Shown here: positions 40,076-63,427 of the stretch, piece by piece
How the letters are laid out: every line of letters starts with the position of its first letter
Position numbering within the stretch: position 1 is the stretch's first letter
From: an uncultured Allomuricauda sp.
Lineage (GTDB): Bacteria > Bacteroidota > Bacteroidia > Flavobacteriales > Flavobacteriaceae
Assembly: GCF_937884665.1 (NCBI RefSeq)
Contig: NZ_CAKZYF010000027.1
Span: forward strand, 1 to 64,000
Direction: 5' to 3'
DNA: 64,000 nt
Position numbers and translations under genes: made by a program
Notes under the pieces: model-generated
Databases searched by the model: none
Told to the model about the DNA's origin: nothing
The model's input: only the letters and a program-made list of their open reading frames with translations

Positions 40076-41432
40076 ATGAAACAAAAAATTTTATGGATTG
40101 CCATCATCGTGGCCCTTGCAGGATTTCTTTTTGGTTTTGATGCAGCCGTTATCTCTGGTGTCAACTCTTTTTGGTTTTGATACTGTGGTAATCTCAGGTG
40201 CGGACAAAAAGCTGCAGGAACTTTGGGGTTCTTCAGATACATTCCACGGACTGGTAGTTATGGGCATGGCCTTATGGGGAACCGTCATTGGCGCTATTTT
40301 TGGAGCGATCCCGACAGATAAACTGGGCCGAAAGAAAACACTTATTTGGATCGGTGTACTGTATTCCATTTCGGCAGTCGGTTCTGCCCTTACCCATGAC
40401 CCTATCAGTTTTGCCATTTTTAGATTTGTGGGAGGTCTTGGCGTAGGTGCTTCCACCATTGCTGCTCCTGCCTATATTTCGGAAATAGCCCCTGCAAAGA
40501 ATCGGGGAAAATTGGTGGGTATGTACCAATTCAACATTGTTCTTGGAATTTTAGTGGCCTACATGTCCAATTATCTTTTGAGCGGTATAAGCGAACAAGA
40601 CTGGAGATTCATGTTGGGCGCTGAGGCAATTCCAGCACTTGTTTATACCATTTTGGTGCTTTATGTTCCGAAAAGCCCGCGTTGGCTCGTGGTCCAAAAG
40701 AGATATGACGAAGCGGAACGTGTGGTTCAATCGCTAGGATTGGATTTTGGATTGGATGATTTAAAAAGCGAGGTAAACACGATAGGTTCCAAAGGATCCA
40801 AGGAAACTATTTTCATGAAAAAATACCGTCTTCCATTGATACTGGCTTTTTTAATCGCTTTTTTTAATCAATGGTCCGGTATAAACGCCTTCTTGTACTA
40901 TGCCCCCCGTATCTTTGAATTGGCGGGGTTGGGGGAGAGCACCGCACTGCTCAGCAGTATCGGTATCGGTGCCACCAATCTGGTATTTACCTTAATCGGA
41001 ATCTATCTTATCGATAGATTGGGCAGGAAACAACTTATGTACTTTGGGTCTATCGGATACATTATATCTCTTGCTTTGGTCTCCGCCGCATTTTTCTTCA
41101 ATTGGACGGGTATGTCCGTCCCCCTATTTTTGTTCGTTTTCATTGCCTCGCATGCCATAGGCCAGGGTGCTGTGATTTGGGTATTCATTTCGGAAGTCTT
41201 TCCCAATCATTTACGGGGGGCAGGCCAAGCTTTTGGCTGCTCTACCCACTGGGTGCTGGCCGCACTGATTCCATCATTTGTCCCTTTCCTTTTTGGTACT
41301 ATAGGACCGGGAATCGTATTCGGTTTTTTTGCTTTTATGATGGTCCTGCAGCTGTGCTGGGTATTTCTAATGATGCCCGAAACCAAGGGCATGAGCCTAG
41401 AGGATTTGGGGAGGCAGCTCAGTGCAAAGTGA
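40076..41432 (+). pseudogene. MFS sugar porter with N-terminal frameshift at an imperfect duplication
   Basis: ATG 40076 gives MKQKILWIAIIVALAGFLFGFDAAVISGVNSFWF then TGA 40178-40180; the rest (LFGFDTVVISGADKKLQELWGSSD...) is in the +1 frame. 16-bp direct repeat TCTTTTTGGTTTTGAT at 40126-40141 and 40166-40181; removing 40 nt restores one normal ORF. Confidence 0.82.
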
Positions 41433-48561: not shown

Positions 48562-49521
48562 ATGGATGTCGTTATAGGAATCGATATTGGAGGGACCAAA
48601 ACAAAAATCGGTTTGGTCAACAGCACCGGGGAATGCCTTGAAAAGACCTTTTTTCGAACCAAAGAATACCCGGATTTGGATGCCTATCAGGATAAGCTGG
48701 TAGATAGTGCCATTTAGCTGATTGAAGAAACTGCGAAGCCACTAAATATTCTGGGCTGCGGAATTGGAGCACCAAACGCTTCCAGCAAAAACGGCACCAT
48801 TGAAAACGCCAGTAACCTGCTATGGAAAGGTAGTGTCCCTTTTCTCGAAAAGCTTGGTAAAAAAATGCCCATGCCCATGCGCATCATGAACGATGCCAGT
48901 GCGGCCGCACTGGGCGAAATGCTTTTTGGCAGCGCGAAAAAAATGACGGACTTCATCGCCATTACCTTAGGTACGGGTTTTGGAGCGGGCATTGTTGCCA
49001 ATGGTCACCTGATTGACGGCTTCGATGGTTTTGCTGGGGAGCTGGGCCATGTAGACATGACCATGGGGGACGGCCGTTTGACGGGACTTGGCGTAAAGGG
49101 CGGACTCGAGGCCTACGTATCCGCAACAGGACTCAAAAGGACGATTTTGCACATGCAGAGCAAGTATCTTGTGGATAGCCGGTTCAGGAGTATTGCTTAT
49201 AACGATCTGCACGGAGAGGATATTACAAAAGCTGCCGAAGAAGGCGACGAAATTGCGTTAATGGCTTTTGACTATACCGCCAAAATTATGGCGCAGGCCT
49301 TGGCCAACTTTACGGCATTTACACAACCCGAAGCCTTTATACTTATGGGTGGGCTTACCAATAGTGGGAAATGGATCATGGAACCCTTGGAACGGTATTT
49401 CAACGAGTTCTTGCTAGAGGTATATAAGGGAAAAGTAAAACTGATGCATTCCGGAATGCAGGGCAAAACAGCAGCCATATGTGGGGCCGCTGCCTTGATA
49501 TGGGAAAATCAAAGGAATTGA
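48562..49521 (+). pseudogene. ROK-family sugar kinase with in-frame amber codon
   Basis: MDVVIGIDIGGTKTKIGLVNSTGECLEKTFFRTKEYPDLDAYQDKLVDSAI*LIEETAKPLNILGCGIGAPNASSKNGTIENASNLLWKG...; TAG at 48715-48717, same frame both sides. Confidence 0.85.
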
Positions 49522-57785: not shown

Positions 57786-59987
57786 TTATCTGTTTTCTGA
57801 GAGTAACTCTTCGGTCTCCTTTATTTTTATGTCTGTGCCCAATCGTTGCAAATAGGCGATCAAGGCGACTACTTCACGATCTCTCATTTCTATAAAATCT
57901 TCTCCATTTTCTTTGGCATATTTCTTATCAGCTTCATAAGTTCTCACGAATTCAGGGTCTGAATACAAGTTTTTTTCAATTTGTAAAGCTTGTTCTGCCA
58001 TGGATTCTTTCGCCCCTGCTATATCTTCTTCAGAATAGGGTACGCCCAATTTTACCATGGCTTTCATTTTATCCTGTACTGCGCCGCGATCGTGTTCATT
58101 CCTGACCAACCATTGGTATGCGGGCATTATCGATCCTGCTGATGTACTTTGTGGATCGTACATGTGGTTCAAGTGCCAATTATCCGAGTACTTTCCCCCA
58201 ACTCGAAGTAAATCGGGACCTGTTCGTTTACTGCCCCAAAGAAAAGGATGGTCGTAAACAAATTCACCTGCTTTGGCATATTCGCCATAGCGTTCCACCT
58301 CACTTCTAAATGGACGTATCATCTGCGAGTGGCATCCTACACAACCTTCCCTTATGTATAGATCTCGACCTTCCAATTCCAGTGGGGTATAGGGTTTGAC
58401 ACTTGTGATTGTGGGAATATTGGATTTTACCAAGATAGTGGGCACGATTTGGATGATGCCACCTATCAAAATGGCAATAGTGGCAAGAACTGTAAGCTGT
58501 ACGGGCTTTCTTTCCTACCAGTTGTGAAAGTTTTCTCCGTCCAGTCTTCTTTTGGTAACGCGGGTGTGAGGTGCTGCTTCAGCCAACTCATCCTCTACGC
58601 TGCTTCCTTTTCTAATTGTCACCACCACATTGTACACCATGATGAGCATACCGAGAATATAGAGACTACCACCAATTGCACGCATCCAATACATGGGAAT
58701 TATCTGGGAAACTGTCTCCAAAAAGTTACCGTAGACCAGACTTCCATCTGGATTGAATTCCTTCCACATAAGCGCTTGGGTAAAGCCAGCTACGTACATA
58801 GGCAAGGCGTACAATACTATTCCCAAAGTCCCTATCCAAAAATGAAAATTGGCCAAGCCTTTGGAGTACAAAGTGGTTTTGAACATTTTTGGCACCAGCA
58901 AGTAAATCATCCCAAAGGTGAGAAAACCGTTCCTAGCCAGCGCACCTACGTGCTCATGGGCGATGATCCAATCGCTAAAATGCGCTATGGCGTGGACATT
59001 CTTAAGCGAAAGCATGGGGCCTTCAAAGGTGGCCATACCGTAACCCGTAATAGCCACTACCATAAACTTTAAGGTAGCATCGCTTCTGACTTTATCCCAT
59101 ACTCCCCTAAGCGTCAAAAGCCCGTTTATCATACCTCCCCAGGATGGTGCTATCAACATCACCGAAAACACAACTCCCAAGTTTTGGGCCCAGTCAGGCA
59201 AAGCAGAATACAACAAGTGATGTGGGCCCGCCCAGATGTAGATGAATATCAAGGACCAAAAGTGTACAATGGAAAGCCGATAAGAGTAAACAGGCCTATT
59301 GGCGGCTTTAGGAACAAAATAGTACATTAACCCGAGGAAGGGCGTTGTCAAGAAAAAAGCGACGGCATTGTGACCGTACCACCACTGTACCAAAGCATCC
59401 TGAACGCCTGCGTAGACGGAATAGCTCTTCAAAGCCCCAACCGGAAGTTCCAAACTATTGAAAATGTGAAGTACGGCGACCGTAACGAAGGTGGCCAGAT
59501 AAAACCAAACTGCTACGTATAAATGGCGTTGTCTACGTTTCAAGATGGTACCTATCATATTCCATCCAAAGACAACCCATACCACCGCTATGGCCAAATC
59601 GATAGGCCACTCCAGTTCTGCATATTCCTTGGATGTGGTATAACCTAAAGGAAGGGTGAGGGCCGCTGCCACGATAATCAACTGCCAACCCCAAAAATTA
59701 ATGCTGCTGAGTGCATCACTGAACATTCTGGTCTTCAGCAGTCTTTGCAGGGAATAATAAACCCCTGCAAAAATAGCGTTCCCTACAAAGGCAAAAATTA
59801 CCGCATTGGTGTGCAACGGACGTAAACGTCCAAAACTCAACCAAGAAATACCATCGGTAATATTGGGGAATAAAAACATAAAGGCCAAAAGAAGGCCCAC
59901 CAACATACCTACAACGCCCCAGAGCATAGTAGCGTACAAAAACTTTTGAACGATCTTGTTATCGTACCGAAACTGTTCTATTTCCAT
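57786..59987 (-). pseudogene. ccoNO: Fused cbb3-type cytochrome c oxidase subunits I/II (CcoNO) interrupted by in-frame TAG
   Basis: CcoN part 59987..58518 ends ...VTKRRLDGENFHNW*; after TAG (58517-58515) the same frame continues ERKPVQLTVLATIAILIGGIIQIVPTILVKSNIPTI... into CcoO with CVGCHSQMIRPF. The ORF track lists the two halves separately (the second with a TTG start). Confidence 0.85.
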
Positions 59988-62642: not shown

Positions 62643-62696
62643 ACACTTTCTGCTTTAACCTATGGCAAAAGTGATTTATCCTTACCAAGGAAAACA

Positions 62697-62708
62697 TGAT
62701 TTATGTCA
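62697..62708. promoter_or_regulatory. Crp/Fnr-type box TGATTTATGTCA between divergent ccoI and crp-like gene
   Basis: Fits TGAY-N4-RTCA; 54 nt from ccoI start and 35 nt from ATG 62744. Confidence 0.55.
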
Positions 62709-62743
62709 GCTTTTTAAGAATGGCCCCATAATATCTTTGCTGT

Positions 62744-63427
62744 ATGGGAAACTGCACCAAAATAAAAAACAAACAACTGAAGGATTTTGTATCCCTACCT
62801 AGGGAAGCCCAAGAACGACTTATTTCAACATCAGAATCCATTAAACTTCCCAAGGGCAGTCTTATTTTTGAGGAAAGCCAACCTTTGGATAAACTGTTCT
62901 GTATAAAAAAGTGAGCTTGTAAGTACAGTAAAATAGATAATACGGGGCAAGAGCACATCCTACGCTTTCTGGGTGAAGGAGAGGTCATGGGCAAAAGAGC
63001 CATGGTGACCAATTGCGCGGCAAGGGTAAGTGCCACAGCCCTTACAGAAACCGAACTTTGCTGTTTGGAAAAAATGGAAATCCAAAAAAACCTTGAGGAA
63101 AACCCAAAATTTTGTCAGGACTTTCTGGATTCATTAATTGAGGACGCCGATATTAATGAAACCACTCGAATGATATTTTATTCGCATAAAAGCATCAAAC
63201 AGCGATTGGCCCAACTTCTCTTGTATTTGTTGCACAAGTTTGGGTGCTGCGAAGTAGGCAGACTTAACGTAAAATTAAAACGTGAGGATATGGCTACCGT
63301 ACTGGGCACCTCACCGGAATATATCATCAATTTGCTCAAGAAATTCAAGAACTTAAAGCTAATTGATACCCAGAAGAGTGAGTTGTACATTTTATCAAGG
63401 TCAGGTTTGGAAATATTGGCAGCGTAA
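62744..63427 (+). pseudogene. Crp/Fnr family transcriptional regulator with in-frame opal codon
   Basis: MGNCTKIKNKQLKDFVSLPREAQERLISTSESIKLPKGSLIFEESQPLDKLFCIKK*ACKYSKIDNTGQEHILRFLGEGEVMGKRA...; TGA at 62912-62914, same frame on both sides; ORF track recovers only 62987..63427. Confidence 0.85.

What the first reader, a model, noticed from the sequence alone, without database searches (positions are those of the whole stretch)
40076..40200. MFS sugar porter broken by a 40-nt imperfect duplication with 16-bp direct repeats (possible reversible switch or gene-conversion scar)
TCTTTTTGGTTTTGAT occurs at 40126-40141 and again at 40166-40181. Each copy is followed by a differently spelled version of the same motif (GATGCAGCCGTTATCTCTGGTGTC = DAAVISGV; GATACTGTGGTAATCTCAGGTGCG = DTVVISGA). 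The two copies are in different frames (40 is not a multiple of 3), so translation from ATG 40076 stops at 40178. Deleting exactly 40 nt between the repeats restores MKQKILWIAIIVALAGFLFGFDTVVISGADKKLQ. Because the downstream halves differ in sequence, a simple slippage duplication is unlikely; recombination with a paralogous sugar porter is a better fit. The 16-bp repeat could still allow precise reversion by slippage.
Basis: partly seen in the sequence, partly recalled or inferred. Interest (0 to 1): 0.65.

Follow-up and report, generated by a model that had tools for sequence, protein, structure and literature searches.

The report
Sugar-porter break, likely chimeric sequence artefact
A sugar-transporter gene in this Flavobacteriaceae-like draft genome is interrupted by a 40-base scrap resembling part of another porter, but the same draft also shows breaks in indispensable genes, so this is most probably a sequencing or assembly chimera and not a genetic switch.

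Summary
In detail: TCTTTTTGGTTTTGAT lies at 40126-40141 and 40166-40181, nowhere else in the genome, and the frame from ATG 40076 ends at TGA 40178-40180. Fourteen orthologues in sister species (64-87% identity) lack the 40 nt. The extra 24 nt (AAVISGVN) is not a diverged copy of this gene. It matches the TM1 motif of another sugar-porter subfamily, found in the reference collection only in six Saprospiraceae MAGs. No such gene was found in this genome or in sampled family genomes, so the predicted paralogue donor is absent. Both junctions fit template switching: the shared FLFGFD segment at the 5' side, TCTTTT at the 3' side. Comparison with a sister genome shows premature stops scattered through this 216-contig draft, including its only MetRS and AtpA, plus a 7-nt deletion in its only IleRS. 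The reverse comparison shows no comparable breaks. The held sequence therefore contains errors, and a chimeric molecule or assembly join with DNA of another Bacteroidota bacterium is the best explanation (0.72). A recent real insertion is the main rival (0.22). A reversible switch is unsupported: precise deletion could restore the frame, but slippage could not put the foreign 24 nt back.

The parts
40076..40180 (+). Truncated 5' reading frame of the sugar porter (34 codons, stop TGA 40178-40180)
40126..40141 (+). First copy of the 16-bp direct repeat TCTTTTTGGTTTTGAT (within codons for FLFGFD)
40142..40165 (+). 24-nt foreign stretch GCAGCCGTTATCTCTGGTGTCAAC (AAVISGVN), like TM1 of a different ~520-aa sugar-porter subfamily; best match 21/24 in Saprospiraceae MAG locus L072
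   Evidence: absent from sisters
40166..40181 (+). Second copy of the 16-bp direct repeat, continuous with the native gene; its first bases TCTTTT also fit the donor subfamily's GVN-SF continuation (possible junction microhomology)
   Evidence: junction reading is inference
40182..41432 (+). Rest of the sugar porter (TIGR00879 / PF00083) in the +1 frame, open and conserved
48562..49521 (+). ROK-family kinase orthologue with in-frame TAG at 48715 (another broken gene of the same assembly; evidence on sequence quality)
57786..59987 (-). Fused CcoN-CcoO cbb3 oxidase orthologue with in-frame TAG (58517-58515) where the sister has TTG (Leu)
62696..63424 (+). Crp/Fnr-type regulator orthologue with in-frame TGA at 62912 where the sister has GGA (TAA at 62729 may lie upstream of the true start)

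Best explanation
The 40-nt insertion is most probably not in the organism's chromosome but is a chimera in the draft sequence. A strand of the porter gene, reaching the highly conserved TM1 segment GFLFGFD, switched to the equivalent segment of a different sugar porter (probably from another Bacteroidota bacterium in the sample), ran on for about 24-30 nt (AAVISGVN, perhaps SF), then rejoined the native gene at TCTTTT, 40 nt upstream of where it should be. The switch could have happened in library amplification or in assembly; in a thinly covered region one chimeric read would set the consensus. The real gene would then be an ordinary intact sugar porter. Shown: the anatomy, the sisters' intact state, the foreign-subfamily character of the 24 nt, the absence of a donor in this assembly, and other gene breaks including essential single-copy genes. 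Inferred: that this particular break is artefactual, the thin coverage, and the template-switch route.
For: 1) Fourteen sister orthologues have no insert. 2) The 24 nt encodes a motif of another subfamily, FGFDAAVISGVN, found in the genome collection only in six Saprospiraceae MAGs, where it mostly continues GVNSF; up to 21/24 nt identity. 3) The donor motif is absent from the rest of this assembly, from about 300 family genomes and, as DNA with up to 3 mismatches, from 396 phylum genomes. 4) The assembly carries breaks in genes a cell cannot do without: its only MetRS has TAA for AAA; AtpA has a stop in GSLTA*PIIETQ; its only IleRS is frameshifted by a 7-nt deletion while sisters have an open 1148-aa frame. 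5) Nine inner stops in 145 genes (about 51,000 codons) against a sister, at least two of them doubtful; the reverse comparison gives only two rows, both spurious antisense frames, and sister versus sister gives none in 55 genes. 6) The porter downstream of the break evolves like a constrained gene. 7) Draft of 216 contigs with 4.19% estimated contamination.
Against: No reads or coverage are available, so the artefact is inferred. The other breaks are single-base stops and one short deletion, not chimeric inserts, so they show general unreliability but not this exact error type. No donor identical to the 24 nt was found. A 16-nt overlap is shorter than the k-mers of common assemblers (own knowledge), so a pure assembly error is less likely than a chimeric molecule.
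Confidence: 0.72

Rival explanations
1. A real, recent insertion mutation in this lineage: replication or repair switched template to another sugar-porter gene (incoming foreign DNA or a paralogue missing from the draft) at FLFGFD, then back at TCTTTT, knocking out the porter. It could revert by precise deletion between the 16-bp repeats.
For: Junction anatomy fits microhomology-guided template switching; the downstream frame is intact, as expected for a young mutation.
Against: Single-copy essential genes in the same assembly are broken too, which cannot be real in a living cell and lowers trust in every break; no donor in the genome.
Confidence: 0.22
2. A functional on/off switch: the 16-bp repeats let the population toggle the porter by slippage.
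For: A 40-nt deletion between exact repeats would give the frame seen in sisters.
Against: The repeat pair is not conserved: no orthologue has it. Deletion loses the foreign 24 nt, so slippage cannot re-create the off state. No donor cassette was found.
Confidence: 0.02
3. The gene is expressed despite the break, through +1 slippage at UUU UGA U (as at the prfB site CUU UGA C) or restart at GTG 40185 or TTG 40098, giving a porter with a duplicated half of TM1.
For: The stop context is TTT TGA T and a +1 slip puts DTVVISGAD in frame; F. johnsoniae prfB uses +1 frameshifting (PMC8710568).
Against: No Shine-Dalgarno-like stimulator precedes it, unlike prfB (sequence); the context arises automatically from the repeat; no conservation.
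Confidence: 0.03
4. Simple tandem duplication of 40 nt in the porter followed by divergence of one copy.
For: Two in-register copies of a 16-bp repeat.
Against: The following 21 nt differ at 8 positions while the 16 bp are identical, and the divergent copy matches another subfamily's motif.
Confidence: 0.01

Closest known systems
Sugar porter family MFS transporters (TIGR00879 / Pfam PF00083)
   Same: The broken gene is an ordinary member; the 408-aa part scores 314 bits against a cut-off of 237.8.
   Different: TM1 is interrupted by a 40-nt frame-breaking insert in this assembly only.
Saprospiraceae ~520-aa sugar porters with GGFLFGFDAAVISGVNSF
   Same: Their TM1 motif equals the inserted peptide.
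   Different: Nucleotide match at most 21/24, so none of the six is the exact donor.
Chimeric molecules formed by template switching in amplification (PCR/MDA; own knowledge)
   Same: Short homologous segment at the junctions, donor from elsewhere, seen in one assembly only.
   Different: Cannot be proved without reads.
Phase variation by slipped-strand repeats
   Same: Direct repeats flanking a frame-breaking segment.
   Different: One-way, not conserved, spacer foreign.

Membership tests
Sugar porter (SP) MFS transporter | Match over the curated cut-off to TIGR00879 / PF00083 | tested here: met
   314.2 bits vs 237.8; PF00083 344.7 bits vs 22.3
Sugar porter (SP) MFS transporter | Intact reading frame through TM1 | tested here: not met
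   Stop at 40178-40180 in this assembly
Phase-variable (slippage-switched) gene | Repeat tract conserved or varying in length among relatives | tested here: not met
   No relative has the repeat pair
Phase-variable (slippage-switched) gene | Mixed on/off population in reads | not testable with these tools
   No reads held
Gene conversion from a paralogue | A donor paralogue in the same genome | tested here: not met
   Only one strong sugar porter; donor motif unique to the insert; the draft is 96.9% complete, so a missing donor is not wholly excluded
Sequence/assembly chimera artefact | Other biologically impossible breaks in the same assembly | tested here: met
   MetRS, AtpA, IleRS broken
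Sequence/assembly chimera artefact | Reads do not support the junctions | not testable with these tools
   No reads held

The most novel reading that the evidence does not exclude
The insertion is real and recent: a sugar porter was knocked out by a 24-nt templated scrap of a foreign porter captured through 16-bp homology, leaving a repeat pair that allows precise one-way reversion, and possibly leaking product through +1 slippage at UUU UGA.
Probability: 0.1. Interest if true: 0.3.

Novelty: not a real feature. Interest (0 to 1): 0.08.

Why it matters
If real, it would be a small example of microhomology-guided gene knockout by foreign DNA with a built-in route back. As it stands its main value is as a warning: pseudogene claims from this draft are unreliable, because essential genes are broken in it too.

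Tried and rejected
Looked for a donor paralogue in the own genome, in the family, phylum, virus contigs and plasmids: none; only Saprospiraceae MAGs carry the peptide motif. Considered gene decay: dN to sisters is low with dS saturated. Lineage-specific amino-acid changes are balanced with outgroup L005 (13 vs 14, 17 vs 17) but not with L078 (26 vs 11, 27 vs 14), which may group with the sisters, so there is no clear sign of decay. Considered a reassigned TAG codon because two of the window's stops are TAG, but TAG ends 28 of 134 long ORFs, and TAA and TGA also occur as premature stops. Literature searches for chimera and MAG-error papers gave nothing I relied on. Searches were rejected queries.

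Full report
OBSERVATION. The repeat TCTTTTTGGTTTTGAT is at 40126-40141 and 40166-40181, has no other copy in the 4.2-Mb assembly, and is the only exact 16-mer repeated within 200 nt in the window; third-order Markov simulations gave 0.03 per window. From ATG 40076 the frame reads MKQKILWIAIIVALAGFLFGFDAAVISGVNSFWF and stops at TGA 40178-40180; the rest of the porter is open in the +1 frame to 41432.

WHAT THE GENE IS. The 408-aa remainder is a sugar porter of the major facilitator superfamily (TIGR00879, 314 bits; PF00083, 345 bits). It lies downstream of a Kdo-transferase-like gene. The whole window is collinear with two sister genomes of the same genus. In three genus members (G010, G023, G345) the orthologue is fused in frame to a long extra part (937 aa in all); the one I read, from G023, looks like a GH32 fructan hydrolase by its WMNDPNG motif, which hints at fructose or fructan as substrate. 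That is recognition by eye, not a family search.

SISTERS. Fourteen of 73 genus genomes, this one included, hold a close orthologue in one piece (64-87% identity), and G006 holds one in two pieces. All fourteen relatives read ALAGFLFGFD(T/V)(V/I)VISGAD with no insert. The 40 nt is therefore private to this assembly.

WHERE THE 24 NT COMES FROM. The stretch between the repeats, GCAGCCGTTATCTCTGGTGTCAAC, differs from the native ACTGTGGTAATCTCAGGTGCG at 8 of the first 21 positions, so it is not a fresh slippage copy. The peptide FGFDAAVISGVN, searched as a degenerate pattern in 84,980 species genomes, occurs in six contigs, all Saprospiraceae MAGs, in porters of about 520 aa where it mostly continues GVNSF. 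The best nucleotide match is 21/24. Within the genus only four other genomes have a similar motif (GFDAAIISGV). This genome has no other strong sugar porter, and the motif occurs only in the insert. Searches of the family, of 396 phylum genomes with up to three mismatches, of viral contigs and of plasmids found no donor. Because the donor subfamily continues GVNSF, the TCTTTT that starts the second repeat can belong to both the donor and the native gene. A switch out at FLFGFD and back at TCTTTT explains the whole structure. This is inference from the anatomy.

IS IT REAL? The gene downstream of the break shows no clear decay. The decisive evidence is the state of the rest of the assembly. In the window itself a ROK kinase (TAG 48715), the fused CcoN-CcoO oxidase (TAG 58517) and a Crp/Fnr regulator (TGA 62912) carry in-frame stops relative to the sisters. 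Over 575 kb of this genome compared with 880 kb of sister G004, 145 genes (about 51,000 codons) show nine inner stops, at least two of them doubtful (a possible N-terminal extension and a probably spurious frame). The reverse comparison shows only two rows, both spurious antisense frames, and sister against sister shows none in 55 genes. The broken set includes genes no cell can lose: the only methionyl-tRNA synthetase (TAA for AAA), the ATP synthase alpha subunit (Pfam on the sister protein) and the only isoleucyl-tRNA synthetase, 7 nt short and frameshifted while sisters have an open 1148-aa frame. These cannot all be true in a living organism, so the draft (216 contigs, 4.19% contamination) contains base errors and small indels. 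A chimeric insert carrying part of a porter found nowhere else in the genome fits such a draft.

MECHANISM AND VERDICT. Best explanation: an in-vitro or assembly template-switch chimera (0.72). Main rival: a real recent insertion by the same kind of template switch (0.22). A reversible switch (0.02) is disfavoured because no relative has the repeats and deletion would be one-way. Rescue by +1 slippage at UUU UGA U (0.03) resembles the prfB site used in Flavobacterium (PMC8710568) but lacks its Shine-Dalgarno-like stimulator. The finding is rated as not a real feature, with low interest.

Noticed in passing
window 48562-49521, 57786-59987, 62696-63424: Three further genes (ROK kinase, CcoN-CcoO oxidase, Crp/Fnr regulator) carry in-frame premature stops relative to sister species.
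   Followed up: yes
own assembly G000: C2:18315, C206:32951, C55 near 78645, C27:77989: MetRS, AtpA, IleRS and a DUF4407 protein are interrupted in this assembly; the first three are indispensable, so the draft has sequence errors.
   Followed up: yes
L006, L007, L079 (genomes G010, G023, G345): The porter orthologue is fused in frame with a long extra part (937 aa total); in L007 it looks like a GH32 fructan hydrolase, a possible transporter-hydrolase fusion conserved in three genomes.
   Followed up: no
L106:14995 (own assembly C8) versus sister ORF L179_3096_17394: A very large 4765-aa protein of the sister has an in-frame stop in this assembly.
   Followed up: no
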